From contig NZ_CP029488.1 in the NCBI RefSeq assembly GCF_003177035.1, positions 3,478,501-3,542,500 of the forward strand: a stretch of DNA of 64,000 bases. The letters are read 5' to 3'. Source of the DNA: Salinisphaera sp. LB1. Lineage in GTDB: Bacteria; Pseudomonadota; Gammaproteobacteria; Nevskiales; Salinisphaeraceae. The notes under the pieces were generated by a model. The model had not been told where the DNA came from. It did not search any database and saw only the letters and a program-made list of their open reading frames with translations. Shown here one piece after another: positions 15,708 through 31,379 of this stretch (the first letter of the stretch is position 1; each line of letters starts with the position of its first letter). The position numbers were made by a program, and so were the translations under genes.

Positions 15708-17540
15708 ATGACCGACCCCCAGAATCCGAAGGCGGCCCTCTCCAGCGACTCCATCGCTGACGAGAAACTTCGACTCGCCGAACTGGCGGTTCTGGATATA
15801 CTCGATACCGGTCCGGAAGAGCGCTTCGACCGGGTGACGCGGCTCGCGGCGAAAATCTTCGACGTACCGACGGCGCTGATCTCCTTCATCGATCACGACC
15901 GCCAATGGTTCAAGGCGCGCCTCGGTCTTGAGTTGTGCGAAACCGCCCGCGGCAACCCGTTCTGCCGTCATACGCTGAATCACGCGCTCGTGTTCCGGGT
16001 CGAGGACACAGCTGCGGACCCGGCGTTTCGAGACAACTCACTGGTGACCGGCTACCCACACATTCGCTTCTACGCCGGTCGCGCCATACGGGGCCCCACA
16101 GGTCAGGCGGTCGGCGCCCTGTGTATCATCGACTACAAGCCGCGTACCTTCGACGACCGAGCCCAGGATATCCTCATCGAACTGGGTGCTCTGGTCGAGG
16201 CGGAGTTGATGCGCCGGCCCGATTGGCCGCGTGGTGCCGGCCATTCGATCGGCGAACCGGGCCGACCCGACCCGACCGGCGTCGTCGGCCATCACGACCT
16301 GATCCACGCGCATGTCGATCGCCTGCTCGCGATTGCGGCGAAGGTCAATCACCGCCTCGCGATCCTGCATCTGCGGCTCGACAACCTGCCGGAATTCAAA
16401 CTCGTTTACGATGCCGGGCAGACGCAGCGCTTCATTAACCGTTGGCTGGAGGACCTGCAGGACAAGAACACCGACCTGATCTACATCGCCCGATTATCCG
16501 AGATGGCCCTCCTCGGCGTGCTCGATCTTGCGGACCGTGTCGATGATATCCGCCGGCGCTGCGATGCGCTGCGCGCGCAGGCGATTCAAACGGCAGACAT
16601 CAACGATATAACCTTCGTGTTCAATACCACGGCCGGCGTGAGCCTGTTCCCGGATCACGCAAGTTCGGCCCAGGAACTGATCAACAACGCGCGCCTTGCG
16701 CACGCCCGACGCCGCCCGGGCGACACGACCGCCCTGTTCACCCCGCTGATGGCGGAGCGCTCCCAGCGCCAATCCCTGTTACAAGAGCGGTTCATGCGCG
16801 CCGTGGTCAACGATGCGCTGCACTTCTGCTGGCAGCCGATTTTCGGTAATTTCGGCCGGACCCTGGTCGGCTTTGAATTGCTCGCGCGCTGGTACGATCC
16901 CCAGCTGGGCGCCATCGGTCCGGAGGAATTCATACCGCTGATCGATCAACAGGAACGGCTCAAGCGCGCCCTGGTCGTCAAAGCCATCGATACCGCCTGC
17001 CGGCAGCTGGCTCGGTGGCAGACCAGGCATTCCGAGCCGCCGCACATCGCCATCAATATTCCCGGCAGCGAGTTCTACCGCGAGGATTTCCCCGACCTGG
17101 TGTCGTCGATACTCGGGGACCACGGCGTGGCGGGCAATCGCCTGATCCTGGAACTGACCGAGCGCAGTCTCATACCCGACTTCGAGGCCACGGCGCAGAC
17201 CATGCGGCGCCTGCGCCAGACCGGTATTCACATCGCGATCGACGACTTCGGCAGCGGTTATTCTTCGATTGCCTATCTGACCGAACTGCCGATTTCGTCA
17301 GTCAAGATCGACAAGAGCGTGGTGCAACAGATCGATCGCGCCGCACAGCGATATCGACTCATGCAGAGTATCGTCGATCTCGCCCATGGCCAGAACCTGC
17401 CCACGGTGGCCGAAGGCGTGGAAACACCGGCCCAGCTCCAGCTGGTCACCGACATGCGCTGCGAATACACCCAGGGCTTTCTTCTCGGCCGTCCCCAGCC
17501 GCTGAAGCAGACCGACGCACTCGTCGACCGCAGCATGTAG
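15708..17540 (+). CDS. GAF - degenerate GGDEF - EAL cyclic-di-GMP signalling protein
   Basis: This 610-residue cytoplasmic protein has three parts. An N-terminal GAF domain (about 25-165) is of the type with SFIDHDRQWFKARLG, NPFCRHTL and GALCIID. A GGDEF-like region (about 190-345) has SEMAL where GGDEF should be, so it cannot be a cyclase. An EAL domain (about 355-605) keeps FELLARW for EAL, AINIPGSEF, ILELTER, DDFGSGYSS, KIDKS, AEGVET and QGFLLGRP. The phosphodiesterase site thus looks complete, with Ala to Leu in the signature. The expected role is c-di-GMP breakdown gated by a GAF ligand. It is convergent with the dipeptidase gene. Confidence 0.88.
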   Translation: MTDPQNPKAALSSDSIADEKLRLAELAVLDILDTGPEERFDRVTRLAAKIFDVPTALISFIDHDRQWFKARLGLELCETARGNPFCRHTLNHALVFRVEDTAADPAFRDNSLVTGYPHIRFYAGRAIRGPTGQAVGALCIIDYKPRTFDDRAQDILIELGALVEAELMRRPDWPRGAGHSIGEPGRPDPTGVVGHHDLIHAHVDRLLAIAAKVNHRLAILHLRLDNLPEFKLVYDAGQTQRFINRWLEDLQDKNTDLIYIARLSEMALLGVLDLADRVDDIRRRCDALRAQAIQTADINDITFVFNTTAGVSLFPDHASSAQELINNARLAHARRRPGDTTALFTPLMAERSQRQSLLQERFMRAVVNDALHFCWQPIFGNFGRTLVGFELLARWYDPQLGAIGPEEFIPLIDQQERLKRALVVKAIDTACRQLARWQTRHSEPPHIAINIPGSEFYREDFPDLVSSILGDHGVAGNRLILELTERSLIPDFEATAQTMRRLRQTGIHIAIDDFGSGYSSIAYLTELPISSVKIDKSVVQQIDRAAQRYRLMQSIVDLAHGQNLPTVAEGVETPAQLQLVTDMRCEYTQGFLLGRPQPLKQTDALVDRSM

Positions 17541-17588: not shown

Positions 17589-18656
17589 TTACCCGCCCCA
17601 GGTCGCTTCAAGTACGCGCAACCAGTTGTCGCGGCTGATGGCCGCTATGGTGGCGGCGTCATAGCCACGGGCCTGCATCGCTTGCGGCAGCGCCGGTAGC
17701 GAGGCGACATCCCGGATCGGGGCAGGCATCGCGCGAACGCCATCGAAATCGGAACCGAGCCCCACGTGATCGGGTCCCATGATCGACAGCATGTGATCCA
17801 GATGATCGAGCATCACCTCGATCGACGTGTCCGCGCCCAACCCGCCATCCGGACGCAGAAAGTAATTGGCGAAATTCAGGCCCACGATGCCGTTGCTACG
17901 CGCGATCGCGCGTAACTGATCATCGGTCAGATTGCGCGCATGGGGACAGATCGCATGCGCGTTCGAATGGCTGGCGATCAGCGGCGCGTCGCTGGTGCGG
18001 GCCACGTCCCAGAACCCCTGCTCGTTCAGGTGCGACAGATCGATTGCGATACGACGCCGGTTGCAGGCCGCCACCAGGGCAAAGCCGGCTTCTGTCAGCC
18101 CCGGGCCGGTATCGGGCCCGGACGGGAAACGAAACGGCACCCCTTCGCCGAATGCACTCGACCGGCTCCAGACTAGGCCCAGGGAGCGAAGGCCGGCCGC
18201 ATGAAAGACATCCAGCGCCTCGAAGTCGGTATCGATGGCTTCCGCCCCCTCGAAGTGCAGCACGGCCGCCACCGCACCGACCGACTCGGCCGCCCGAATG
18301 TCCGCAACGCTTCGGCAGATGCGAAAACGACCCTCGGACGCGGCCTCGATTCGCAGCAGGCGCGAGATCATGGTCATGACGCGCGGCATCGCCTCGGCCG
18401 CGCCCATTGCCGGCGCAAGCGCCTTGTCGTATCCCGTTCCGGTTGGCACCAGCGGCGATCGATCGTTGGCCGGCGGCACGAAAACCGCGAACAGGCCACC
18501 CCCGAATCGCCCCCGGCGCATTCGTGGCCAGTCCAGGTGCCCGTCCCCCCGTCCGTCGAGGAATTGGCGTATCGCCTCGTGCGCCGGCAGCTCAGCGAGC
18601 TGCAGCAACATATCGTTGTGGCCATCGAAGATCGACGGCCACTCGGGGTCGGTCAT
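17589..18656 (-). CDS. M19-family (renal-type) dipeptidase
   Basis: This 355-residue TIM-barrel metallopeptidase has the metal ligands of family M19: FDGHNDM near the N-terminus, a bridging Glu in HFEGAEAI, IDLSHL and ASHSNAHAI, plus VGLGSDFDG near the C-terminus. The family cleaves dipeptides including D-amino-acid ones, and some members act on beta-lactams or lactones. I see no signal peptide, so it is probably cytoplasmic. It starts 18 bases after the cqsA stop on the same strand, so it is likely co-transcribed with the quorum-sensing synthase; its physiological substrate is unknown. Confidence 0.87.
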   Translation of the reverse strand: MTDPEWPSIFDGHNDMLLQLAELPAHEAIRQFLDGRGDGHLDWPRMRRGRFGGGLFAVFVPPANDRSPLVPTGTGYDKALAPAMGAAEAMPRVMTMISRLLRIEAASEGRFRICRSVADIRAAESVGAVAAVLHFEGAEAIDTDFEALDVFHAAGLRSLGLVWSRSSAFGEGVPFRFPSGPDTGPGLTEAGFALVAACNRRRIAIDLSHLNEQGFWDVARTSDAPLIASHSNAHAICPHARNLTDDQLRAIARSNGIVGLNFANYFLRPDGGLGADTSIEVMLDHLDHMLSIMGPDHVGLGSDFDGVRAMPAPIRDVASLPALPQAMQARGYDAATIAAISRDNWLRVLEATWGG

Positions 18657-18674
18657 GTCATTTCCTGTCGAACA

Positions 18675-19937
18675 TCAGGCCGCCAGACTGTCGACGGTGT
18701 TGTTGCGCTGCGCGCGACGGGTGGATGGCCAGTTTGCCAGATCAACTTCTTCGCGGATGTCGCGACAGACCTGGATCACATGGTCGAGCTGGTCGCGCGT
18801 GATGCCCGCGTTGATCGACAGTCGAATCAATGACCGCTTGGTCGCAGTGGCCGGCGCGCAGAAGACCGATCCAAACACGCCGCGGGATTCAAGCGCGTCA
18901 CGGAGCACCATCGTCTGCTGTTCGCGCCCCGCTTCGAGCGCAATGATCTGGGCCTTGCTGATTTCAACGTTATAGCCCAGCGCGTCCAGGTTGCGCCTCA
19001 GATACTCGGTATTCGCAAAAAGCCGCTGGCGCTGCTCATCCGCCGCCTTTATCAGGTCGAGGGTCTTGCTCAAGGCCGCAATGTCGGGCGGCAGCAAGGC
19101 CGAACTGAAGATCGCCGGGAAGGCGTTGTACTTGATGAACTGACGCAGCCGGTCGCTGCAGGCGATCAAGCCGGCGCGGCCTGCAAACGCCTTGGCCAGA
19201 CTGGCGGTAACGAAATGGACCTTGTCCTGCAAACCCAGCCCAGCGACCATGCCGCTGCCCTGCCAGCCATGCGTGCCCAGCGAATGCGACTCATCCACGA
19301 TGATCACGCAACCGGCTTTCGAGGCGACGTCCACGATTTTGCGTACCGGCGCGACGCTGCCATTGGTGCTGTACACCGAGTCGATGACCACTATGCCCGG
19401 GCCGTTGCGCTTGATCATCGCCGCCAGATGTTCGGTACTGTTGTGCCGAAAGGGCTTGGCTTCCAGACCGGCAGCCTGAATACCCTGCCAAAGCGAGGCA
19501 TGAGCCATCATGTCGATATAGACGGGAGTGCCCTTCACGCCGATGGACTGAATCAGCCCGACATTCGCGGCATAGCCAGACTGACAGAGTAGCGTGGACT
19601 CCATGGCCATCCAGCTCGCCATGCGGTTTTCGAAGTCGTCCTGCGGACTGTCGCCATGCAGATACACGGCGGACATAACCATGGTGTTGTCGGTGGCGTC
19701 GAGCGTGTCGATCTGAGCCTGTCGGATGTCCGGGTGATTCGCCAAGTCGAGATAATCGTTGCTCACCAGCATCACGGCATTCTCGTCAGGGGAACGCCCG
19801 TGCATGATGTGTCCACCCTGCCAGGTCTTTTCGACGCGCTCGCGATAGTAGTGATCGACGTGGGCTGAAAGAAAATCCGGCTCGGCAGCGGTGCGCGTAT
19901 TGCGAGCTTGGTGATTGATGGAGGAGAGCTGATTCAT
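18675..19937 (-). CDS. cqsA: Alpha-hydroxyketone autoinducer synthase, CqsA/LqsA family
   Basis: This 420-residue PLP enzyme belongs to the alpha-oxoamine synthase group. It keeps SNDYLDLANHPD, DESHSLGTHG with PLP-contacting Asp215 and His218, and the Schiff-base Lys249 in VTASLAKAFAGRAG. The alignment by eye fits CqsA of Vibrio and LqsA of Legionella better than KBL or BioF: the start FLSAHVDHYYRERVEKTWQG, HGRSPDENAVMLVSNDYL and SAVYLHGDSPQDDFE are CqsA-like. CqsA makes the precursor of CAI-1-type signals from an acyl-CoA and an amino-acid-derived substrate. The kinase and regulator genes lie just upstream on the same strand. Confidence 0.88.
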   Translation of the reverse strand: MNQLSSINHQARNTRTAAEPDFLSAHVDHYYRERVEKTWQGGHIMHGRSPDENAVMLVSNDYLDLANHPDIRQAQIDTLDATDNTMVMSAVYLHGDSPQDDFENRMASWMAMESTLLCQSGYAANVGLIQSIGVKGTPVYIDMMAHASLWQGIQAAGLEAKPFRHNSTEHLAAMIKRNGPGIVVIDSVYSTNGSVAPVRKIVDVASKAGCVIIVDESHSLGTHGWQGSGMVAGLGLQDKVHFVTASLAKAFAGRAGLIACSDRLRQFIKYNAFPAIFSSALLPPDIAALSKTLDLIKAADEQRQRLFANTEYLRRNLDALGYNVEISKAQIIALEAGREQQTMVLRDALESRGVFGSVFCAPATATKRSLIRLSINAGITRDQLDHVIQVCRDIREEVDLANWPSTRRAQRNNTVDSLAA

Positions 19938-20500
19938 GCGAGGCCTCGTTGATTCGACGATGAGAGTGGGAATAAGAACAATAGATTTTGACGCAGCTGT
20001 TTCAAAAGGTGCATTGCAGCTACCGGTGCACTCTAATTTTTTATAAAAATCGCCCGGTTTTCAAATTAACTGCTGTAGCCACGATTCAGCTTACCCAATA
20101 TCGGCGCCCAAGGGCCTCGATTCAGCGCATTGCCTCCAATCTCAACCGCATCATCGGCCGTTGTTACAGCACTTGCATGGAGCTTGTTGCAATACCGGGC
20201 GCGGCTCCGCAATCGTCATACAAATCAATGCGTAGGCCGATGGGTGGCGAGCGCGGAGAGGTCTTCGCGCGGCAATTGGAGCGCGAGTGGGAAGAGGCCG
20301 CTGCGCGCAGCGCACGCCGGTCATACCCGGGCGGTAATCGAGTGCGCCGCGCTCAATGCATTCGATTAACGTCCGTCCGCAGCGCGCGCCCGGGCCCCGC
20401 CAGCCTGCGAGGTTTGCGCACGACGCGCGCGATAGGAGGCACACGCCAACCAGGACGCGTGCTTGGAGTGCTGCGCCCCGGCGAACCGGGATGAGCCCGG
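19938..20500 (-). other. 563-base gap between lqsR and cqsA
   Basis: Near cqsA the gap is AT-rich and promoter-like. Its other two thirds (about 20130-20500) are GC-rich with no reading frame that looks like a gene. It is long for such compact DNA and could hold a small RNA or an untranslated leader; I could not define either. An imperfect TTGC...GCAA dyad near 20188-20214 was seen. Confidence 0.4.
19978..20005 (-). promoter_or_regulatory. Candidate sigma-70 promoter of cqsA
   Basis: On the minus strand TTGAAA (20005-20000) is followed after 16 bases by TATTGT (19983-19978), about 40 bases before the cqsA ATG. Two direct copies of GGTGCA (20009-20014 and 20025-20030) flank its upstream side and are a possible regulator site. 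A second TTGAAA with TATAAA lies farther up with a spacer that is too short. Confidence 0.4.
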
Positions 20501-20502
20501 TT
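20484..20502 (-). other. Stem-loop at the end of lqsR
   Basis: AACCGGG, a five-base loop and CCCGGTT form a perfect 7-bp hairpin overlapping the lqsR stop codon. No T-run follows on either strand, so it is a 3-prime-end structure rather than a clear terminator. Confidence 0.35.
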
Positions 20503-21520
20503 ACATCAATGAGTAACCGACCGTGTCCAGCCACTCCAGGAATTCGTTGTAACTGGGCCGGGCTTGTATACCGCCCCCGGTACAGGACATGTCGAACAGG
20601 CTCCAGCGTAAATCGCCGGCCGCATCACCGAGTTCGGCCCCGGGCGCTGTATGGGCCGACCAGTCCAGTTCATGATAGACGGAACTATTGGGATCGAGCA
20701 TGAGCGTGCCCGCTTCCAGGCCGTCGACGATCGCTGCCGGAGCACCGGCCGCGCGCGCGCGCTGTGCTTCGTGCGCTCTTTCGTCGCGGCTCTGGATGAC
20801 CACCCGTTTGACCTGGCCGGCGGCGTCGGCGAACACGAACCCCGTGGGCTCGACGGCCAGGTAATACTCCACCAGCCCCTGGTCGGCGCGCAGCCGCTCG
20901 ATCAGGCGCGCCACCGCGGGCTCCTTGAGTAGACCGGGCAGATCGACGGGAAACACATCCGCCGCGGCGGTGAATACATCGCGGATATATTCCTGTTGGA
21001 ATTGACGGATCGCTTGGTTGAGCGTGTCGTAAACCGCATGCTCATGCTTGCGGATGTACTGATCGATGATGCCGTGATTGAAGGCGTCGACCGCCACCGA
21101 TTCCGTGGCCACCCCCGTGAACAATATTTTCTTGACGTGTGGATCCTTGATCTGGCGGCAGAACTCGAGCCCGTTCATCTGTGGCATGGCGTAATCGACC
21201 AACGCCACCGAAATCTGCGCAAAGCGGTCGGACGCCTGCATCTCGCGGTGCAGGGCGCTGATATCGAGCGCGAGCGACTCACGATGGTTCTTGCCGCTGT
21301 CGCCGTGGCCGTTTGGCACCGCCTTGAAAAAACGGTCGCGCGCGGTGCCATTCGGCTGACGTCCGTTGAGGTAACCCAGCGCCTTGTGGGTTGAATCGAA
21401 TAGCAGATAGGCCAGATCAGCATCGAGCTGCAGGCTCAGATTGCCGAGAAAATCGATATCGTCATCGACCAGAACAATCTGCGTCGGGTGGAAATACGGC
21501 GCCAGTTCAATCGTAGCCAT
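20501..21520 (-). CDS. lqsR: LqsR-type response regulator
   Basis: This 339-residue protein (start ATG 21520, 10 bases after GGAG) has an N-terminal receiver domain: acidic pocket Asp19-Asp21 in VLVDDDIDFL, phospho-acceptor Asp109 in ALVDYAMPQMNG, Thr135 in LFTGVATES and Lys158 in YIRKHEH. The stretch between the acidic pocket and Asp109 is about 50 residues longer than usual, a polar insertion near residues 53-100. The C-terminal half has no helix-turn-helix or enzyme motif I know, as in Legionella LqsR. It overlaps the kinase gene by 14 bases and precedes cqsA. Confidence 0.78.
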   Translation of the reverse strand: MATIELAPYFHPTQIVLVDDDIDFLGNLSLQLDADLAYLLFDSTHKALGYLNGRQPNGTARDRFFKAVPNGHGDSGKNHRESLALDISALHREMQASDRFAQISVALVDYAMPQMNGLEFCRQIKDPHVKKILFTGVATESVAVDAFNHGIIDQYIRKHEHAVYDTLNQAIRQFQQEYIRDVFTAAADVFPVDLPGLLKEPAVARLIERLRADQGLVEYYLAVEPTGFVFADAAGQVKRVVIQSRDERAHEAQRARAAGAPAAIVDGLEAGTLMLDPNSSVYHELDWSAHTAPGAELGDAAGDLRWSLFDMSCTGGGIQARPSYNEFLEWLDTVGYSLM

Positions 21521-22943
21521 CGTCGGCAATCTCCGGAAAGCTCATGATGAATTCAGTGTATTCGCCCAGTACCGAGTCGCAGCGGATATATCCGCCGAAG
21601 CTATCGATGACAAGACGCACGAAAGCGAGGCCGATCCCGGTCCCCTGGCCACGAGGCATGCCTGAGTAGAAACGCTCGAAGATCCGCGGCAACGCCTCCG
21701 GGCGTATACCCGGCCCGGTATCCTGGAAATGCAGCTGATGTATGCCGGAAGCGGATCGGGACGTCCAGATCACAATGCGCCCCCCGTTATTGCTCGCCAG
21801 ATGATACAGGGCGTTCTTGAGCAGGTTGAACAGCACATGAACCATCAAGAGCTTGGAACCATGGAACAGGAAGTCGGGCCCGCCCGCTCGTTCGATCCAG
21901 TCCCGTTCACGTGCCGAATGAAATGGATAACGATCGAGTGCGGTGGTTACGCAATCCGCGATGGACACCGATTCGAAGGTCGAACGATCAATCGCGGCAC
22001 GGCTGGAATTGACCAGCAGCATGTCCAGTACGGCGCTGGTGTACTCACTTTCCGTATGAATACGGTTGAGAACCGATTGGATCTGCTGAAAATGAGCTTG
22101 CCGGATCGGTCGTACCGGCAACGAATGTTGGCGAGCCAGTTCGTAGCCTTCGATGAGAATCGGAAGATAGGTATTCAACCCGCGCGCGCCACTGCGTATG
22201 CCGAGCAGCGGCGTACGCAACTCATGGGCCATGGTACCGACGGCATCGGTGATGGCGGCGAGTTTCTCCTGTGCCACGAGTTCGGATTTGTAATTGAAGG
22301 CGCTACCCGCAACGAGTCCGAAGAGATAGATGGACACCAGTACCGGGAGCGGGATATCGCCCTGGACTTCGAACCCCCCGCCGAGAGCGACAAACACAGC
22401 CCAGGCCAGCAGCGCGCCGGAGATCGACAGGATGAGCGTCATCAACCAGTCGAACACAAGGATCACCAAAAGCATCAACGCCGCCATCGTCGACAGCGCC
22501 CATACGGATGACAGGTGATTGAGCAACGTCATCAGAACGAAGAAGAAAGGCAACTGGAACAGCAGGATGAACAACCAGTAGATCGCCAACCACTGCTCCA
22601 TGTTGCGATGTCTCGACAGTTGACGTTCGAACAGCATGGGAATCGAGAATAGAACGCATATCGAACGCAGCCAGACACTTTCAAAAGGTTGCGGATACAC
22701 GTTCTGCCAGATGTAGTAGTACAGCGGTTGGCCGATGATCTCTACGATGGCGAAGGTAGTCATGCTGGCGCGGGCGTAAGTGGCACTCTGCTGTAGCGAG
22801 ACGACCAGACGCGTCCATACCCGCCGCAGAATGACTTGCCAGTAGAAAAGCAGCGCCTCCCGAAGATTTCGGTGTCGCCGGTCGCGAGGTTGCGCCGCGT
22901 GACCGTTGACACGAGCATCTTCACTCTGAGACGAGTCCGTCAT
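21507..22943 (-). CDS. lqsS: LqsS/CqsS-type quorum-sensing histidine kinase
   Basis: This 478-residue protein has a short soluble N-terminus, about six membrane helices (residues 62-215) with almost no periplasmic loops, then a kinase core: phospho-acceptor His240 in GTMAHELRTPLLGIR, N-box NLLKNALYH (about 373-381), DTGPGI (408-413) and GTGIGL (434-439). The multi-helix sensor and His-box sequence are those of the CqsS/LqsS receptors for alpha-hydroxyketones. Unlike Vibrio CqsS there is no C-terminal receiver; that job falls to the overlapping downstream regulator. It is divergent from the GGDEF-EAL gene. Confidence 0.82.
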   Translation of the reverse strand: MTDSSQSEDARVNGHAAQPRDRRHRNLREALLFYWQVILRRVWTRLVVSLQQSATYARASMTTFAIVEIIGQPLYYYIWQNVYPQPFESVWLRSICVLFSIPMLFERQLSRHRNMEQWLAIYWLFILLFQLPFFFVLMTLLNHLSSVWALSTMAALMLLVILVFDWLMTLILSISGALLAWAVFVALGGGFEVQGDIPLPVLVSIYLFGLVAGSAFNYKSELVAQEKLAAITDAVGTMAHELRTPLLGIRSGARGLNTYLPILIEGYELARQHSLPVRPIRQAHFQQIQSVLNRIHTESEYTSAVLDMLLVNSSRAAIDRSTFESVSIADCVTTALDRYPFHSARERDWIERAGGPDFLFHGSKLLMVHVLFNLLKNALYHLASNNGGRIVIWTSRSASGIHQLHFQDTGPGIRPEALPRIFERFYSGMPRGQGTGIGLAFVRLVIDSFGGYIRCDSVLGEYTEFIMSFPEIADDGYD

Positions 22944-23005
22944 GTCACCCTACGCCCCCGCAAAGTCCGGATATCGAGACCGATACGCAATAATGCGATT
23001 CCTTC

Positions 23006-23011
23006 AGTATA
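23006..23011 (-). promoter_or_regulatory. Candidate -10 of the lqsS-lqsR unit
   Basis: TATACT on the minus strand lies about 62 bases before the lqsS ATG in the divergent gap. No convincing -35 is visible, so an activator may be needed or the hexamer may be chance. Confidence 0.3.
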
Positions 23012-23111
23012 CTGGCTCGGCATAGATCTCGTTGCGTTCACTAAATGTCCCGACTCACAAGACAGCGTGGTCGTACGCCCTGTTCAGGCGACGTCCAGCC
23101 AGTAGGTCGCG

Positions 23112-23125
23112 GCCCTCTCTAGGGC
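23112..23125 (+). promoter_or_regulatory. Hairpin covering the ribosome site of the GGDEF-EAL gene
   Basis: GCCCT, loop CTCT, AGGGC forms a small stem whose right arm holds the only purine-rich AGGG ahead of the ATG at 23136. It could limit translation. Regulation is inferred from the structure only. Confidence 0.35.
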
Positions 23126-23135
23126 GTGCGCGATC

Positions 23136-25565
23136 ATGTCTGCCGCTCGACGCATACTCTACGGCTGCCTCGGTCTGCTTCTGATCAGTCAATTCGCGGC
23201 GCTCGGCGTCGCCTGTCTCAGCGCCCCCCGTCGCGACATGATCACCCTGCTCATTGCGGCGTTCGGTTGCGCACTGGCAATCGTTCTCCTGTGTATCATC
23301 TGGCGCCAGGATCGGCGCGACCGGGTCAGCGGCGCAGCGGTACTGGCCGAATGGATCGAGCAAGTCGATGTCAGCGCGGACGACCTGCCCCAGTTCGATC
23401 AGGCCCTGGCCAGCCGAGCCCCGCGCCTGACCGGCGCCATCGAGACCCTGATCGCGCGGCTCCATGATTATCGCGACAAGCTGCTCGTGCGGCATCAGCG
23501 GGTCCAGCGACTGCTTCGCAACGTCACCGACGTGTTGTATCACGCCGACCGGGACGGCCGGCTGACCTGGGTCACCGACTCGGTTTCGGACATGCTCGGC
23601 TACACACCGCAGGAGTTGCGTGGTTATTCCCTGGCACAGCTGCTGGCGGACCCGGATACCGATCTGCCGATACTCACGCAAAGCGCCAATATCGTGCGCT
23701 ATCCCACACGCGTGTTTCGCAGCGATGGCAGCATTGCATGGTTGCTGATTTCGGCACGCCGCATCGACGACGCCGAAGGCCAGATCGTGGGCAGCGAGGG
23801 CATCTGCCGCGACGGCACGCGCCTGATCGAGACCCAGCGCCAGCTCAACCAGGAAAAAGAGCGGGCCCAGGTCACGCTGGCGGCCATCGGCGACGGGGTA
23901 ATCACCACGGATGCCAGCGGCACGATCGACTACGTCAATCCGCGCGGTCAGCACATGCTGGCGCGAAAGATGAAGCAGGTTCAGGGGCGCGCCTTCGAAA
24001 ACGTCTGCCGCTTGTTCGACCCGGACAAGAAAGAATTCATCGACGGGCTGGTTACGGACTGTCTCGAGACCGGCATCTCGCGCGAGTGGGCCAACGCCCT
24101 GGCCCTGGTGGGCGATCAGCTGCCTACCCGGGATCCGAACGACTATCGCTCGGTGACGGTTACCGTCTCCGCGATCCGCGACGAAAAAAGCCGGATCATC
24201 GGTGCGGTGGTGGTGCTGCATGACGTGACGCGGCTCGAGCGCGTCTCCCGTGAGCTGACCTATCAAGCCAACCACGATTCGCTGACCGGACTGCTCAATC
24301 GGCGTGCTTTCGAACGCCAGCTTCGACAGGTGCTGGAAGCGACCCGAGTGAACAAGGTCTGGCATACGCTATGCTATCTCGACCTGGACCAGTTCAAGCT
24401 GATCAACGACAGCTGTGGTCACCATGCCGGCGATGCGATGCTGCGCCAGCTGTCGTCGCAGATGATCACCCAGCTCAGACCCCACGACACCCTGGCCCGG
24501 CTCGGCGGGGACGAGTTCGGCATCATCTTCGAGGAAACCGACCTGGAAACCGCGCAGGCGGTGGCCGAACGCCTGCGGCAATGGCTCGAGGGGTTTCGCT
24601 TTGAATGGGAGGGCAAGGCGTTCCGTCTCGGCGCAAGCCTCGGCCTAAGCGTCATCGGGGAAGACTCGATCAGCGCCGCCGAATTGCTGCGGCGTGCCGA
24701 CACCGCCTGTTATCTGGCCAAGGAACAGGGGCGGAATCAGGTTCGCGTCTATCATCGCAACAGTGATGAAGCCCGCATGCGCGACTACGAGATCGAGCGC
24801 ATGCAACAGATCAACGAAGCGCTCGACGAGCATGGCTTCGTTCTGCACGCCCAGCCCATTGCGCCGTTGATACCCCGAACCGAAGATTGGCGCATGGGCA
24901 GCGAACTGCTGCTGCGAATGAAGGGCGACCCTGGCGCGATGATCTCCCCGCAGAACGTGTTGCTGACGGCGGAACGCTACAGCATGGCATCGCGTATCGA
25001 TCGCTGGGTGATCAACCACGCCCTGCAGCTGATCGCCCGGTACGACGCGGACTGCCCCCGCATCGGCTATTACAGCATCAACATTTCCGGCCAATCGATC
25101 ACCGACGAACAATTCGTCGGCTTCGTGCGCGAATGCATCGACCGCTCAGGCGTCGACCCGAAACGGCTGGTCTTCGAGATCACCGAGACCGCGGCCGTGA
25201 CCAATCTGCAGCGTGCCGCCGATCTGATGCGCTCCCTGCGCGCGATCGGCTGCCGGTTCGCGCTCGACGATTTCGGCAGCGGCGTGAGTTCGTTCAGTTA
25301 TCTCAAGCACCTGCCCTCGGACTTCGTGAAGATCGACGGCAAGCTGGTTCGCCACCTCACCGAAGACCCGGTCGAACATTCCATCATCGAAGCACTCAGC
25401 AAGGTCAGCCAGGCCGTCGGCCTGCGCACGGTGGCCGAACAGGTCGAGACCAAGGAACAACTCGATGCGCTGGAACGGATCGGCATCAATTATGTGCAGG
25501 GTTACTATATCGCGCGGCCCATGCCTTTCGAGCAGTTCATCGAAAGCATGAAGGTCGAGCCATAG
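23136..25565 (+). CDS. PAS-PAS-GGDEF-EAL membrane protein (c-di-GMP cyclase/phosphodiesterase)
   Basis: This 809-residue protein has two N-terminal membrane helices (about 7-27 and 36-55), two PAS domains (about 125-235 and 240-365), an intact GGDEF (457-461) with an RPHD inhibitory site at 448-451, and an EAL domain (about 550-805). The EAL part shows SELLLRM, SINISGQSI, FEITETAA, DDFGSGVSS, KIDGK, EQVET and QGYYIARP. It could both make and break c-di-GMP; the direction cannot be told from sequence. It is divergent from the quorum-sensing kinase, sharing the intervening promoter region. Confidence 0.9.
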   Translation: MSAARRILYGCLGLLLISQFAALGVACLSAPRRDMITLLIAAFGCALAIVLLCIIWRQDRRDRVSGAAVLAEWIEQVDVSADDLPQFDQALASRAPRLTGAIETLIARLHDYRDKLLVRHQRVQRLLRNVTDVLYHADRDGRLTWVTDSVSDMLGYTPQELRGYSLAQLLADPDTDLPILTQSANIVRYPTRVFRSDGSIAWLLISARRIDDAEGQIVGSEGICRDGTRLIETQRQLNQEKERAQVTLAAIGDGVITTDASGTIDYVNPRGQHMLARKMKQVQGRAFENVCRLFDPDKKEFIDGLVTDCLETGISREWANALALVGDQLPTRDPNDYRSVTVTVSAIRDEKSRIIGAVVVLHDVTRLERVSRELTYQANHDSLTGLLNRRAFERQLRQVLEATRVNKVWHTLCYLDLDQFKLINDSCGHHAGDAMLRQLSSQMITQLRPHDTLARLGGDEFGIIFEETDLETAQAVAERLRQWLEGFRFEWEGKAFRLGASLGLSVIGEDSISAAELLRRADTACYLAKEQGRNQVRVYHRNSDEARMRDYEIERMQQINEALDEHGFVLHAQPIAPLIPRTEDWRMGSELLLRMKGDPGAMISPQNVLLTAERYSMASRIDRWVINHALQLIARYDADCPRIGYYSINISGQSITDEQFVGFVRECIDRSGVDPKRLVFEITETAAVTNLQRAADLMRSLRAIGCRFALDDFGSGVSSFSYLKHLPSDFVKIDGKLVRHLTEDPVEHSIIEALSKVSQAVGLRTVAEQVETKEQLDALERIGINYVQGYYIARPMPFEQFIESMKVEP

Positions 25566-25942: not shown

Positions 25943-25954
25943 ATGCCTTTAAAA

Positions 25955-25970
25955 CTGTATATAAATACAG
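25955..25970 (+). promoter_or_regulatory. LexA (SOS) box of imuA-imuB-dnaE2
   Basis: CTGTATATAAATACAG is a perfect CTGT-N8-ACAG LexA operator with an AT-rich centre that can double as a -10 element. It lies directly before ATG 25973 and inside the reading frame from the upstream ATG 25943, which argues that 25973 is the true start. Confidence 0.9.
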
Positions 25971-25972
25971 TC

Positions 25973-26794
25973 ATGCAAACACGTGAACCCAACCCGAGTA
26001 ACAACAGTCCGGCGGCCGCGCTGGAGGCGCGCTGGCAACGATTCGGTGTGCACCGTGCCAGCCGCGCCGCGGCACCCCTGACCTGGTCGAGCGGCTGGCC
26101 CTGGCTCGATGCGCTGCTGCCCGGCGGGGGCTATCCTCTGGCCGCGGTCACGGAATTTCTGGTGGAATCCGCCGGCCGGGGCGAACTCAGCCTGCTTCTC
26201 GCGGCGCTCAAACCCCGGCTGGAAGCCTGGCCCGATAGCCGGCTGGTCTTCGTCGAACCGCCGCATCGGCTGAATGCTCCCGCACTGGACGGCGCCGGCA
26301 TTGATCGCGCACGCGTTCCGGTCATTCGCTGCCGCGACACCGCCGAGAGAGTCTGGAGCATCGAGCAGCTGGCGGCGGCCGGCGGTTTCGTGGCCTTCGT
26401 GCTCTGGGACGATAATCTGGATACGCCGGCATTGCGTCGCCTGCAGCTGGCCAGCGAAAAAGCCGGCGGCCCCGTTTTCGTCTATCGCGATCTGGCCTGT
26501 GCCCGGCACCGCTCGCCGGCCGCCTTGAGGCTGGCAATCCAGAGTCGAAACGGACGACAGAAAATCGAAGTACTGAAATGCCGGGGCCCCGCCGGCGGAA
26601 CCGCTGACGGCCTGAAGGCTGCACGCGACCGCGGATGGGCCCCGGTACAAGGCACGGTCGTACCCACCGAAGCGGCCAATCGCGAGAGCGCGCCGATGAC
26701 CGGCACCGGCACACCGCGCACGGCTGGCCCCGGCTCCGCAGGCCCGGGGACCACAATGAACGCAAACGCGCCAGGCCGCTCGTACACCCGATAA
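25973..26794 (+). CDS. imuA: ImuA, RecA-like accessory protein of the mutasome
   Basis: This 273-residue protein resembles ImuA (SulA-like/RecA-like). It has the family segments SSGWPWLDALLPGGGYP and VTEFLVESAGRGELSLL near the N-terminus and the later VFVEPPHRLNAPAL. The start is ATG 25973, right after the LexA box. In ImuA-ImuB-DnaE2 systems the protein helps damage-induced mutagenesis; it has no proven catalytic role here. The Pro/Thr/Gly-rich tail (about 220-273) looks disordered. imuB starts 3 bases after its stop. Confidence 0.85.
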   Translation: MQTREPNPSNNSPAAALEARWQRFGVHRASRAAAPLTWSSGWPWLDALLPGGGYPLAAVTEFLVESAGRGELSLLLAALKPRLEAWPDSRLVFVEPPHRLNAPALDGAGIDRARVPVIRCRDTAERVWSIEQLAAAGGFVAFVLWDDNLDTPALRRLQLASEKAGGPVFVYRDLACARHRSPAALRLAIQSRNGRQKIEVLKCRGPAGGTADGLKAARDRGWAPVQGTVVPTEAANRESAPMTGTGTPRTAGPGSAGPGTTMNANAPGRSYTR

Positions 26795-26797
26795 CCC

Positions 26798-28231
26798 ATG
26801 TGGCTGGCGTTGCGGTTTCCGAATTGGGCGTTGGATTGCCGAGGTATCGCGCAGGAGCGCCCCATACTTGTCGTTGAAACCATCGGCCCGCGTCAGCGGG
26901 TGGTTGCGGCCAGTCGAACGGCCCGATCGCATGGCGTGAGGCGGGGCATGGCCCTGGCCGATGCGCGCATGCGTCTGCCCGAGGCGGCGCTCCATGAGCG
27001 TAGCCAAGCCGCCGAAACGGCCGCCATGACCCGGCTGGCCGGCTGGGCCTGGCGCTACAGCAGCCAGATTCACTGGGCGATCCAGGACCAGGATATCGAA
27101 TGCGCCCGACTGATTATCGAGATCGGCGCCAGTCTCCGCCTGTTCGGAGGCCGACGCCCCCTGCTCGCCGCCATTCGCGACGACCTGAAATGGATGCATT
27201 ACGCTTGTCGCGCCGGCCTGGGCGATACGCCGCAGGCCGCCCTCGCCTTCAGCCGGGTGCGCCGCGGCAGCCCCGATGCGGCCGCGTTGGCCACCCTGCC
27301 TGTTGCCTGCCTGGATCTCGACGCCGCCACACATGACACGCTCGCGGCCAGCGGCTTTCGGCAGGCCGGCGAACTTCTGGCCTTGCCGCCGTCCACCCTG
27401 GTCCGGCGTTTCGGCAAGACGCCACTGCTTTATCTGGAGCAACTGCGAGGACGTCGGCCTCATGGGCTGCGTCTCTACGAACGGCCGCAACGCTACCGCA
27501 CCCATCACGAGCTCATCGGCGCGGTTGAAAGCACCGCGGGCCTCATCTTCACTCTACGGCGCATATTCGCAGAGCTTTCGATCTTCCTGCGTGGCACGGA
27601 CTGTGCGCTACAGACACTGCGCCTCAGTCTTTTTCACGAACGCCGGCCCACGACCCGGGTCACGCTACGGTTATCCGCCCCCACCCACGACGCCCGGCAC
27701 CTGGAACGGGTGGCCTGCGAACGCCTCGAGCGCGTCACGCTGGCGGCGCCCGTAATCGAAATCGGCCTGGTCAGCGACCGACTTCGTCCCGCCGAACACC
27801 GACAAAATGCGTTCTGGCATCAAAGCGAACCGCGTGTCGGCGCGACCTGGCCGGGGGTACTTGATCGTCTGCGCGCCCGTCTCGGTCCGCAGGCGGTTCG
27901 CTGGCTGGATGCACCTGCCGATCATCGGCCCGAGCAGGCCTCGATCGAACGCGACAGCGAACCGTCCCGAACTGTGCTCGATGACGATGGCGATGCTCTG
28001 CCACGCCCGCTGTGGTTGCTCGATCCGCCCGAACGCATCGGCGCCGAAGCACTTGAGGCCATGCACTGGATCAGTGGCCCGGAACGCATTGAAAGCGGTT
28101 GGTGGGATACAGGGCAGCGGCGCGACTACTACCGTGCCTTCGACCCCCGGGGCCGCCTGCTCTGGGTGTTTCGCGATCTGAATGCAAGCGACACCACGGC
28201 CGGCTATTTCCTGCATGGACTGTTTGGCTGA
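26798..28231 (+). CDS. imuB: ImuB, Y-family polymerase-like protein without the catalytic acids
   Basis: This 477-residue protein has a Y-family fold: MWLALRFPNWALDCRG at the N-terminus, GVRRGMALADARMRLPEA, and IEIGASLRLFGGRRPLL where polymerases have the SxDE motif. Asp at the first site is missing and the second acidic pair is replaced, which is the mark of ImuB, a non-catalytic hub that joins DnaE2 to the sliding clamp. A helix-hairpin-helix-like stretch (RQAGELLALPPSTLVRRFG) follows. It sits between imuA and dnaE2 in one SOS operon. Confidence 0.9.
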   Translation: MWLALRFPNWALDCRGIAQERPILVVETIGPRQRVVAASRTARSHGVRRGMALADARMRLPEAALHERSQAAETAAMTRLAGWAWRYSSQIHWAIQDQDIECARLIIEIGASLRLFGGRRPLLAAIRDDLKWMHYACRAGLGDTPQAALAFSRVRRGSPDAAALATLPVACLDLDAATHDTLAASGFRQAGELLALPPSTLVRRFGKTPLLYLEQLRGRRPHGLRLYERPQRYRTHHELIGAVESTAGLIFTLRRIFAELSIFLRGTDCALQTLRLSLFHERRPTTRVTLRLSAPTHDARHLERVACERLERVTLAAPVIEIGLVSDRLRPAEHRQNAFWHQSEPRVGATWPGVLDRLRARLGPQAVRWLDAPADHRPEQASIERDSEPSRTVLDDDGDALPRPLWLLDPPERIGAEALEAMHWISGPERIESGWWDTGQRRDYYRAFDPRGRLLWVFRDLNASDTTAGYFLHGLFG

Positions 28232-28274
28232 GGCCGGCGACAGAACATGAGAAAATCACTTTAACGCACTTGAA

Positions 28275-31200
28275 ATGAATTACGCAGAGCTTTGTTGTGT
28301 CAGCAATTTTTCATTTCATCGCGGCGCCTCCCATCCCGAAGAACTATTCGAGCGTGCGGCATATCTTGGTTACAGCGCTCTGGCCATCACCGATGAATGC
28401 AGCCTCGCGGGCGCCGTGCGGGCCCTCCTCGCATCCGAGCGCGTAGGGCTTCGCCTCATCCTCGGCAGCCGCCTGGCGCTGGCTGAAGGCCCGACGCTGG
28501 TGGCCCTGGTGCGAAACCACCGTGGCTACACCCAGCTTTGCCGCCTGATCACGCGCGCCCGCCGAAATGCCGACAAGGGCTGCTACCGCCTGACACGCGC
28601 CGACCTGGATAGGCTCGAACTCGATGCCTGCTGGTTACTCGCGCTGCCGGACCACGGCCGGCCACCCGGCCCGGCCCTGCACGAACTTCTGGCCTGGCTG
28701 AGCGTGCATTACCCGCACACTGCCCGGATCGCCCTGGCCCGGCACCGCGGCCCGCATGATCTCCTCCACGTGGAACGCCTGAATCGCCTGCGTTTGCAAT
28801 ACGGGCTGCCGATCGTGGCGGTCGGCGATGTGCATATGCACAGCCGTTCGCGCCGGGCCCTGCAAGACGTCTTGACGGCGCTGCGCCTGGGCACACGTGT
28901 CGCCGGAGCCGGTCATGCCCTGGCGGCCAACGGCGAACGTTATCTGCGACCGCGTCGCACGCTGGCTGCGTTGTATCCGCCCGACGCCCTGGCCGAGACC
29001 CGCCGCATCGCCGACGATTGCCGTTTCGATCTGCGCACGATTCGTTATGACTACCCGGGCGAACTCGTTCCGGCTGCCCATACTTCAAGTAGCTTCTTGA
29101 AAGTTCTGGTGGAGGAAGGGGCCGCAAGTCGCTGGCCCGATGGGGTTTCCGATGCGGTCAAAAAAAAGATCGATGAGGAACTCGAAATCATCGAGTTCAT
29201 GGATTACCCGCACTATTTCCTGACCGTCCGCGACATCGTGGTCGAAGCACGGCGACGCGGGATTCTGTGCCAGGGACGCGGGTCGGCGGCCAACTCGGTG
29301 GTCTGCTTCTGCCTGGGCATCACGGAAGTCGACCCGACCCGGCACGAACTCCTGTTCGAGCGTTTCATTTCGCGCGACCGCAACGAGCCGCCGGATATCG
29401 ATGTGGACTTCGAGCACGAACGCCGCGAGGAAATCATACAGTACATCTACGGCAAGTACGGACGATCGCGGGCCGCCCTGGCCGCCACCGTGATCCGTTA
29501 TCGGCCGCGCAGTGCCATGCGCGATGTAGCGCGCGCCATGGGTTTGTCCGCCGACCAGATCGACACGCTGGCCGGCGAACTGTCACGCCGGGCCGATGAC
29601 GGCACGCTGGATGAACAACTGGCAGCGCGCGGCGTACGCATCGACGCGCGCTTGCTACACCAGATCCTGGTGCTGGTCGACACGCTGATCGGCTTTCCGC
29701 GCCACCTGTCACAACACGTGGGCGGCTTCGTGCTCAGCCAATGCCCATTGGAAGAACTGGTGCCGGTCGAGAATGCGGCCATGGTCGATCGCACGATCAT
29801 CCAGTGGGACAAGGACGATCTGGAAACCGTCGGTCTGATGAAGATCGATGTCCTGGCGCTCGGCATGTTGACCTGTATCCGGCGCTGCTTCGATCTGATT
29901 GCCGGCTACACCGGCCATCTCGGCTCGATGTCCAGCCTCCCCGGCGGCGATCCCGACACGTACCGGATGATTCAGCGCGCCGATACCATCGGCGTCTTCC
30001 AGATCGAATCACGCGCGCAGATGACGATGCTGCCGCGCTTGAAGCCCAGCTGTTTCTTCGATCTGGTGGTGGAGGTCGCCATCGTGCGGCCCGGCCCGAT
30101 CCAGGGCGGCATGGTGCATCCCTATCTCAAGGCGCGCGAGCATCCGGGCCACATCACCTACCCCAGCGAAGCCTTGCGCGGCGTGCTCGAACGCACCCTG
30201 GGCGTGCCGATCTTTCAGGAGCAGGTCATGAAAATCGCCATGGTCGCTGCCGATTTCAGTGGTGACGAAGCCAACGGCCTGCGCAAGTCGATGGCGGCCT
30301 GGAAACGGGAAGGCGGCCTGGAGCCCTGGCGCGACCGGCTCAAGTCCGGCATGCGCAGGAATGGGTATGCGGAAGAATTCGCCGACCGAATCTTTGAACA
30401 AATCAAGGGGTTCGGCAGTTATGGCTTCCCCGAATCGCATGCGGTGAGCTTCGCTCTGCTGGTTTATGTTTCGGCCTATCTGAAGTGTCATTATCCGGCC
30501 GCGTTCGCAGCGGCACTGCTCAACAGCCAGCCGATGGGTTTCTATGCACCGTCCCAGATCGTGCGCGATGCCCGCAGGCACGGAGTGGCGGTCCGGGCTG
30601 CCGATATCCGCTATTCACAGGGCCATTGCACGCTGGAAGGCGCGCCGGGCGAAGCCGCGGGTTGCCACGACCGTCCAGCGCTGCGTCTCGGCCTGCGGAT
30701 GATCAAGGGACTGGCCCCCGACGCCGCGGACCGAATCGTGGCGGCGCGCACCCGGCAGGCCTTCGACAATGTGGGGGATCTGGTGACACGCGCCCGGCTG
30801 GATCGGCGCGCCCGCGATGCCCTCGCGCGTGCCGACGCGCTGACGGGCCTGGCCGGCCATCGGCATCGGGCACAGTGGCAGATCGCGGCCGCGCGAGTGC
30901 ACGACGACCTGTTCGCGGGTATCGACGCCCCCGAGCCCGGGATTGGACTCTCCGAGCCGAGCGAAGCCGCGGACATCGTGGCCGATTATCACAGCACCGG
31001 GCTGACGCTGCGCCGTCATCCCATGGCGTTGCTGCGCCCCGGCCTGGCGCGTACGGGCGCGATCACGGCCGCGACCTTCAATCGCCTGACACACCAGGCA
31101 TGCGCCCATGTGGCCGGTATCGTGACCATGCGCCAGCGCCCCGGCAGCGCCAGGGGCGTGACCTTCGTCACCCTCGAGGACGAAAGCGGTTACGTGAACG

Positions 31201-31379
31201 TGATCATCCGCCGCGACGTACTGGCGCAATACCGCGTCGCGGTGCTATCCGCCCGTTTGCTCCGGGTGACCGGCGTGATGCAGCGTGCCGGCGCGGTGCG
31301 ACATTGTCTGGCACACGAAATCGTCGACGACACCGCACGGCTCGGCGCGCTCGACACACGATCACGCGATTTTCATTGA
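28275..31379 (+). CDS. dnaE2: Error-prone DNA polymerase DnaE2 (ImuC)
   Basis: This 1034-residue C-family polymerase begins with a PHP domain (NFSFHRGASHPEEL, ITDECSLAGAVRAL). It has the palm with catalytic Asp residues in PPDIDVDFEHERREEII and LMKIDVLALGML, then SYGFPESHAVSFALLVYVSAYLK, and an OB domain near the end (VTFVTLEDESGYVNVII). The length and absence of the long DnaE tail fit DnaE2, the SOS-induced translesion enzyme. It lies 43 bases after imuB. In some PHP positions His or Asp ligands seem changed, as is common in DnaE2. Confidence 0.93.
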   Translation: MNYAELCCVSNFSFHRGASHPEELFERAAYLGYSALAITDECSLAGAVRALLASERVGLRLILGSRLALAEGPTLVALVRNHRGYTQLCRLITRARRNADKGCYRLTRADLDRLELDACWLLALPDHGRPPGPALHELLAWLSVHYPHTARIALARHRGPHDLLHVERLNRLRLQYGLPIVAVGDVHMHSRSRRALQDVLTALRLGTRVAGAGHALAANGERYLRPRRTLAALYPPDALAETRRIADDCRFDLRTIRYDYPGELVPAAHTSSSFLKVLVEEGAASRWPDGVSDAVKKKIDEELEIIEFMDYPHYFLTVRDIVVEARRRGILCQGRGSAANSVVCFCLGITEVDPTRHELLFERFISRDRNEPPDIDVDFEHERREEIIQYIYGKYGRSRAALAATVIRYRPRSAMRDVARAMGLSADQIDTLAGELSRRADDGTLDEQLAARGVRIDARLLHQILVLVDTLIGFPRHLSQHVGGFVLSQCPLEELVPVENAAMVDRTIIQWDKDDLETVGLMKIDVLALGMLTCIRRCFDLIAGYTGHLGSMSSLPGGDPDTYRMIQRADTIGVFQIESRAQMTMLPRLKPSCFFDLVVEVAIVRPGPIQGGMVHPYLKAREHPGHITYPSEALRGVLERTLGVPIFQEQVMKIAMVAADFSGDEANGLRKSMAAWKREGGLEPWRDRLKSGMRRNGYAEEFADRIFEQIKGFGSYGFPESHAVSFALLVYVSAYLKCHYPAAFAAALLNSQPMGFYAPSQIVRDARRHGVAVRAADIRYSQGHCTLEGAPGEAAGCHDRPALRLGLRMIKGLAPDAADRIVAARTRQAFDNVGDLVTRARLDRRARDALARADALTGLAGHRHRAQWQIAAARVHDDLFAGIDAPEPGIGLSEPSEAADIVADYHSTGLTLRRHPMALLRPGLARTGAITAATFNRLTHQACAHVAGIVTMRQRPGSARGVTFVTLEDESGYVNVIIRRDVLAQYRVAVLSARLLRVTGVMQRAGAVRHCLAHEIVDDTARLGALDTRSRDFH

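What the first reader, a model, noticed from the sequence alone, without database searches (positions are those of the whole stretch)
18675..22943. A complete alpha-hydroxyketone quorum-sensing set in a non-Vibrio, non-Legionella setting
Sequence shows, on one strand, a six-TM histidine kinase (His240), a LqsR-like regulator and a CqsA-like PLP synthase (Lys249). Known CqsA/CqsS (Vibrio) and LqsA/LqsS/LqsR (Legionella) systems use such parts. The order here, kinase-regulator-gap-synthase, differs from Legionella lqsA-lqsR-hdeD-lqsS, and the regulator is a separate protein as in Legionella, unlike the hybrid Vibrio CqsS. This suggests a third arrangement of the system; the signal molecule and targets are unknown.
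Basis: partly seen in the sequence, partly recalled or inferred. Interest (0 to 1): 0.85.

Follow-up and report, generated by a model that had tools for sequence, protein, structure and literature searches.

The report
Salinisphaera hydroxyketone quorum-sensing gene set
A Salinisphaera bacterium carries a complete, Legionella-type gene set for talking to its neighbours with alpha-hydroxyketone signals; [quoted passage not shown]

Summary
On the minus strand lie a six-TM histidine kinase (His240), an LqsR-type response regulator and an alpha-hydroxyketone (AHK) synthase (PLP-Lys249), in a Salinisphaera genome. The synthase scores 596 bits against the NCBI AHK-synthase model (cut-off 428) and groups with AHK synthases, not BioF/KBL. 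The regulator matches Legionella LqsR in sequence and predicted structure.

The reading "third arrangement in an unexpected setting" is weak. Papers already report lqs/cqs/jqs clusters across Proteobacteria, and Janthinobacterium jqsA was tested. The order kinase-regulator-synthase is the Legionella order read backwards, without hdeD; the synthase strand differs. The one-strand form also occurs in another family (8 of 10 loci examined).

The newer element is a fourth gene. In 10 of 10 Salinisphaera relatives with the set, a divergent GGDEF-EAL gene lies next to the kinase gene, in two chromosomal settings that otherwise differ within the flanks examined. GGDEF genes also adjoin AHK sets in Alcanivoracaceae and a Paraburkholderia clade, but a second sample (20 loci, 18 new) had one case, so the link looks lineage-specific.

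Verdict: new member of a known kind, with a testable c-di-GMP hypothesis. No function was tested.

The parts
18675..19937 (-). AHK autoinducer synthase (CqsA/LqsA/JqsA family), 420 aa, PLP lysine K249
   Evidence: NF005526 596 bits, cut-off 428; CqsA 3hqt 1.2e-107; AHK clade in tree; 6 of 9 acyl-pocket residues of CqsA identical
19938..20500 (-). intergenic gap between regulator and synthase; probably holds the synthase's own promoter (inference); no RNA gene found
   Evidence: no Rfam match at E<=1; fold z -0.77; only the ~127 bases near the synthase are partly alike in the closest relative, 68.5%; 3 sigma-70-like matches in 18400-23400 against 1.8 +/- 1.5 in shuffles
20501..21520 (-). LqsR-family response regulator, 339 aa, phospho-acceptor D109
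   Evidence: LqsR 6sy9 2e-44; AlphaFold model mean pLDDT 88.2, top PDB match LqsR E 1.4e-26, TM 0.75; D19, D109, K158 invariant in 41 rows
21507..22943 (-). six-TM sensor histidine kinase, LqsS/CqsS type, 478 aa, H240; no receiver domain found
   Evidence: HATPase_c above and HisKA below the Pfam cut-off, no receiver at E<=1; sensor motif P-x5-W-x4-PQ-x2-E-x3-LR and W-x2-S shared with Vibrio CqsS; model
22944..23135 (.). 192-base region between the divergent kinase and GGDEF-EAL genes
   Evidence: 78-base block 79% identical in the closest relative
23136..25565 (+). PAS-PAS-GGDEF-EAL protein, 809 aa, divergent from the kinase; constant fourth gene in the Salinisphaera genomes that have the set
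   Evidence: Pfam; next to the kinase in 10 of 10 genus relatives, once cut by a contig end; found in the same 11 of 14 genus genomes as the regulator
17589..18656 (-). M19 membrane dipeptidase directly downstream of the synthase; probably a passenger
   Evidence: Pfam PF01244; next to the set in the window and in 2 of 10 relatives, L059 and L064

Best explanation
This is an Lqs-type AHK quorum-sensing set of Salinisphaera. The synthase joins an acyl-CoA to an amino-acid-derived carbon unit with PLP and leads to a 3-hydroxy-4-ketone or its amino form (inferred from CqsA/LqsA). The signal is sensed in the membrane by the six-TM kinase, which changes the phosphorylation of D109 of the LqsR-type regulator (inferred from LqsS-LqsR). 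The regulator's output changes group behaviour. The confidence given is for this part. In this genus the first place to look for the output is the divergent GGDEF-EAL enzyme, which would tie cell density to c-di-GMP; that step is scored apart, among the rivals and in the novel case. Shown here: family membership, motifs, gene order, conservation. Inferred: every biochemical step and the signal structure.
For: Synthase in the AHK model and clade; sensor motif shared with CqsS and LqsS; regulator like LqsR in sequence and model; of 22 matches to the kinase family in the genome only the window's own covers the sensor part, the others begin at profile position 186 or later; synthase and regulator in the same 11 of 14 genus genomes; set kept in 10 of 10 relatives that have the synthase. 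In Janthinobacterium, cqsA and lqsA partly restored a jqsA mutant (PMC3566124, passages).
Against: No signal, phosphotransfer or phenotype has been measured. Of the three genus genomes without the set two are only 81% and 87% complete, so the joint absence rests on one good genome (G013, 99%). Janthinobacterium jqsA did not complement Vibrio cqsA mutants (PMC3566124, passage), so products and partners differ between lineages. Profile comparison of the regulator family with GGDEF proteins found no relation (probability 0.25%).
Confidence: 0.88

Rival explanations
1. The set works as an Lqs system, and the GGDEF-EAL gene is only a neighbour inherited with it, with no functional link.
For: G000 has 19 EAL matches and 31 GGDEF matches, 30 of the latter over cut-off, so such neighbours are not rare. 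The second sample gave 1 of 20 loci. Synteny within one genus can be inertia.
Against: Flanks differ between two groups of genomes while these four genes stay together. GGDEF/EAL density within 1 kb of AHK loci is 14.8 per 100 kb against 0.0-1.8 in bins farther out, though this comes from three lineages.
Confidence: 0.55
2. The GGDEF-EAL protein is the regulated effector or a partner of the circuit, making a four-gene quorum-to-c-di-GMP module.
For: Conserved divergent pair; GGDEF, RxxD I-site and EAL-domain signature residues kept in the window and in the nine relatives with full sequence, the EAL motif reading ELL (residue roles recalled); LqsR output domain described as a degenerate diguanylate cyclase fold without detected activity (PMC10653808, passage); Legionella Lqs signalling is linked with c-di-GMP through LvbR (PMC11237717, passages).
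Against: Not an operon, no shared binding site shown; not general across AHK loci; no profile relation between LqsR family and GGDEF proteins.
Confidence: 0.35
3. The synthase makes a non-signal product (BioF/KBL/serine-palmitoyltransferase-like metabolism).
For: Same fold superfamily; BioF-like models also match, below their cut-offs.
Against: Among the 25 families shown it is above cut-off only for the AHK model; 8 BioF/KBL-like rows fall outside the 95-row AHK group, SH-aLRT 99; beside an AHK-type sensor gene in 10 of 10 genus relatives.
Confidence: 0.05

Closest known systems
Legionella Lqs system (LqsA, LqsR, LqsS)
   Same: Separate LqsR-family regulator (6sy9 best match), kinase without receiver, same gene order read backwards
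   Different: Synthase on the same strand as regulator and kinase; no hdeD between kinase and regulator (hdeD from PMC3376566, passage); no second AHK sensor found in the genome; divergent GGDEF-EAL gene.
Janthinobacterium Jqs system (jqsA, jqsS, jqsR)
   Same: All three parts outside Vibrio and Legionella (PMC3566124, passages)
   Different: There jqsA affects violacein; targets here unknown; order there jqsA-jqsS-jqsR by locus tag
Vibrio Cqs system (CqsA, CqsS)
   Same: Synthase family; six-TM sensor motif
   Different: V. campbellii kinase frame is 690 aa and no regulator match lies in the fetched region (L185); hybrid nature of CqsS recalled
Ralstonia PhcX (LqsR family)
   Same: Regulator family
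   Different: PhcX sits by the Phc system; LqsA and the Lqs kinases are missing in that species complex (PMC10653808, section 17)

Membership tests
AHK autoinducer synthase (CqsA/LqsA/JqsA) | Score above curated model cut-off | tested here: met
   596 against 428 bits
AHK autoinducer synthase (CqsA/LqsA/JqsA) | Groups apart from BioF/KBL | tested here: met
   95 against 8 rows, SH-aLRT 99; quick method, drawn with midpoint root, long branches flagged
AHK autoinducer synthase (CqsA/LqsA/JqsA) | PLP lysine and acyl pocket | tested here: met
   K249; 6 of 9 pocket residues identical, V32M, F79Y, F257Y differ (pocket list from PMC3285556, passage)
AHK autoinducer synthase (CqsA/LqsA/JqsA) | Makes an AHK or aminoketone | not testable with these tools
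   needs mass spectrometry
LqsS/CqsS sensor kinase | Six-TM sensor with conserved motifs, W104 and S107 equivalents | tested here: met
   alignment of 15 kinases; model. Residue roles from PMC3376566 (passages); the Legionella-type L069 itself lacks the W
LqsS/CqsS sensor kinase | Binds the cognate signal | not testable with these tools
   needs a binding or signalling assay
LqsR response regulator | Receiver with phospho-Asp plus LqsR output domain | tested here: met
   the sequence match to 6sy9 covers residues 9-271 of 339
LqsR response regulator | Degenerate GGDEF-like output fold | tested here: inconclusive
   Near full-length structural match to LqsR; no profile relation to GGDEF proteins; long but poor superposition on 3bre, a receiver-GGDEF protein (TM 0.27-0.34; identity of 3bre as WspR recalled)
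Lqs gene cluster | Synthase, kinase and regulator genes adjacent | tested here: met
Cqs (Vibrio) cluster | Hybrid kinase with receiver, no LqsR | tested here: not met
   Kinase 478 aa, no receiver at E<=1; LqsR-type regulator present

The most novel reading that the evidence does not exclude
In Salinisphaera the AHK set is a four-gene module in which quorum signalling acts through a dedicated, divergently encoded GGDEF-EAL enzyme, and c-di-GMP enzymes were recruited beside AHK sets separately in Alcanivoracaceae and in a Paraburkholderia clade.
Probability: 0.35. Interest if true: 0.5.

Novelty: new member of a known kind. Interest (0 to 1): 0.32.

Why it matters
AHK signalling has been studied in few organisms, and how LqsR acts is open (PMC10653808 says its mechanism awaits work, passage). 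A Salinisphaera isolate with one AHK sensor found, one LqsR and a constant c-di-GMP neighbour would be a simple model for asking whether LqsR-type outputs work through c-di-GMP. The gene set itself is one more case of a widespread system.

Tried and rejected
Gap as an sRNA locus: no Rfam match at E<=1, fold no better than shuffles, little conservation even in the closest relative. Rejected.

BioF/KBL identity: rejected. Dipeptidase as part of the system: beside it in the window and only 2 of 10 relatives. Rejected.

General AHK/c-di-GMP association: in the first set 26 of 93 distinct loci have a GGDEF/EAL gene within 1 kb, but these are three lineages. A post-hoc binomial on lineages, whose number (20 or 29) I set by eye, gave P 0.006-0.018 for three lineages within 1 kb and 0.0002-0.001 for five within 1.5 kb. 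A second sample of 20 loci gave 1 of 20. Two of these 20 (L239, L242) have the contig lengths of L113 and L156 of the first set, so 18 are new; 9 of the 20 come from L071's family and 4 from one other genus. Rejected as a general rule. In the Paraburkholderia clade of 14 rows 11 have it; L099, L104 and L127 showed no match, L104 with only about 2 kb on that side.

Profile comparison of LqsR family with GGDEF proteins: nothing. A paper on c-di-GMP in Alcanivorax (PMC6440734, passages) does not bear on the AHK set. Listings, judged by titles and abstract openings only, showed no paper on GGDEF genes beside AHK clusters.

Rows dropped: five loci fetched twice from the same contigs (L060, L064, L066, L067, L068) were left out of the 93. 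The regulator tree used 66 of 68 and the kinase tree 83 of 84 rows, those under 250 aa left out. Structure alignments used 41 of 64 regulators and 38 of 69 kinases, window included. The output was cut in the middle; the kinase tree itself was shown.
Full report
Setting. The window lies in one 4.14 Mb contig. The genus is therefore Salinisphaera. One genus member is filed as Endozoicomonas sp. G2_2 (L080), probably a misnomer.

Observation. His240 and Lys249 are correct. The regulator most likely starts at 21520, overlapping the kinase by 14 bases.

Synthase. It is above cut-off for the AHK-synthase model (596 against 428 bits) and for none of the other 24 families shown (bioF 242 against 426). 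V. cholerae CqsA is the best solved relative (1.2e-107; next family 4.2e-42). In a tree of 103 rows it sits with the other Salinisphaera rows, inside a 95-row group apart from 8 BioF/KBL-like rows (SH-aLRT 99; quick method, some long branches flagged). Six of nine residues lining the CqsA acyl pocket are identical; V32, F79 and F257 are M, Y and Y (list from a passage of PMC3285556). I draw no tail length from this.

Kinase. The sensor shares P-x5-W-x4-PQ-x2-E-x3-LR and W-x2-S with Vibrio CqsS, the latter being the W104/S107 positions named in PMC3376566. Identity in the sensor is 25% to V. campbellii CqsS and 27% to the Legionella-type locus; in the kinase part 30% and 47%. Pfam finds no receiver domain, whereas the V. 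campbellii kinase frame has 690 aa. In the whole genome, of 22 matches of the family profile only the window's own covers the sensor part, so no second AHK sensor was seen.

Regulator. It matches LqsR of L. pneumophila (6sy9) at 2e-44 over residues 9-271. The model (mean pLDDT 88.2) has LqsR as top PDB match, E 1.4e-26, TM 0.75; the matches that follow share the receiver domain, most of them that domain alone, some with other output domains. A paper reports that the LqsR output domain looks like a diguanylate cyclase domain with a degenerate motif and without detected activity (PMC10653808, passage). My profile comparison with GGDEF proteins found nothing, so I rely on that paper for the fold.

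Distribution and order. In the genus the same 11 of 14 genomes have the synthase over cut-off, the regulator and the GGDEF-EAL protein. The three without are 99%, 87% and 81% complete. In an even sample of the class 8 of 369 genomes have a synthase over cut-off, in one of the phylum 16 of 398, in one of the order of G424 28 of 398. Of 93 distinct loci, 53 have the synthase facing regulator and kinase (as in the Legionella-type L069), 11 have all three on one strand (10 Salinisphaera and L071), 13 have a long kinase and no regulator found, 9 have neither found (some at contig ends). In 9 further loci from L071's family 7 have the complete one-strand order, one has regulator and synthase on one strand with no kinase found (L229), and one is a lone synthase, a second copy in its genome (L235). 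The arrangement is shared and not a third kind of system. Genes were called by likeness to the window's proteins or to models built from them, so very different partners could be missed.

Trees. The Salinisphaera rows form one group of 11 with full or near-full support in synthase, regulator and kinase trees. The nearest neighbours outside the genus differ between the trees, so I claim no donor lineage.

Literature. AHK clusters outside Vibrio and Legionella are in print: PMC3376566 and PMC3566124 (passages) and PMC10653808 (section 17 and passages), which found LqsR/PhcX orthologues in 310 of 6,937 Proteobacteria genomes. Two searches (Salinisphaera with quorum sensing and autoinducer; Salinisphaera with cqsA) found no paper; this covers open-licence PMC papers only.

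The fourth gene. A PAS-PAS-GGDEF-EAL gene (23136-25565, plus strand) is divergent from the kinase. It is there in 10 of 10 genus relatives with the set, once cut by a contig end (L065). Eight relatives share one chromosomal setting (L060 seen to share it on the kinase side, L065 on the synthase side only), the window and two relatives (L059, L064) another, with matches to the window's genes at 25943-31379 on one side and to the dipeptidase and aconitase-like genes on the other. Within the flanks fetched (up to about 10 kb, less at contig ends) the families found in all ten relatives are these four genes plus one family of antisense frames over the GGDEF-EAL gene. Signature residues are kept in the window and the nine relatives with full sequence: GGDEF, RxxD I-site, ELL in place of EAL, and the other EAL-domain residues (roles recalled). 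G000 has 19 EAL and 31 GGDEF matches, 30 of the latter over cut-off.

Is this a wider rule? In the first set, GGDEF/EAL genes lie within 1 kb of the AHK set at 14.8 per 100 kb, against 0.0-1.8 in bins farther out: 26 of 93 loci, namely 9 Salinisphaera, 11 Paraburkholderia of one clade, 6 Alcanivoracaceae. Pfam finds GGDEF without EAL in the one Paraburkholderia and one Alcanivoracaceae protein scanned, and their N-termini look membrane-bound by eye. A second sample of 20 loci, 18 of them new, gave one case, L227, 692 bases from the kinase. The link looks lineage-specific; the Salinisphaera case is the strongest.

Mechanism. Most likely an ordinary Lqs-type circuit: synthase, diffusible AHK, six-TM kinase, LqsR-type regulator. 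In this genus the first place to look for the output is the divergent c-di-GMP enzyme. In Legionella, Lqs signalling is connected with c-di-GMP through LvbR (PMC11237717, passages), which makes the idea reasonable but does not test it.

Verdict. Confirmed observation; new member of a known kind; the strand variant is minor; the c-di-GMP neighbour is the part worth an experiment.

Noticed in passing
L061:16019, L062:9577, L063:10738, L066:9559, L067:9957, L068:9123: A palindrome TGAC-N5 to N7-GTCA lies about 50-70 bases upstream of the synthase start in 6 of 10 Salinisphaera relatives (TGACAAAAATTGTCA in three, one read on the other strand); none in the window's gap. Such matches also occur elsewhere in these loci. 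Possible operator.
   Followed up: partly
window 25943-31379: Three genes that look like an imuA-imuB-dnaE2 mutagenesis cassette (names recalled, not family-scanned) lie beyond the GGDEF-EAL gene; matches lie in the same place in L059 and L064.
   Followed up: no
window 15708-17540: A second c-di-GMP protein (GAF, GGDEF below cut-off, EAL) lies two genes from the synthase; matched at the same place in L064.
   Followed up: no
L080: Record named Endozoicomonas sp. G2_2 carries a Salinisphaera-type set, and its contig length equals that of a genome of the window's genus: likely a misnamed record.
   Followed up: no
L135, L136, L143, L144, L146, L147, L148, L149, L155: Chlorobiota/Chlorobiaceae carry AHK synthases beside long CqsS-like kinases, grouping with Vibrio in the synthase and kinase trees.
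   Followed up: no
L139, L140, L153: In two Neomarinimicrobiota and one other bin the AHK-type sensor is on a 572-604 aa protein; in L140 the kinase part hardly aligns (15% identity). Perhaps a different output.
   Followed up: no
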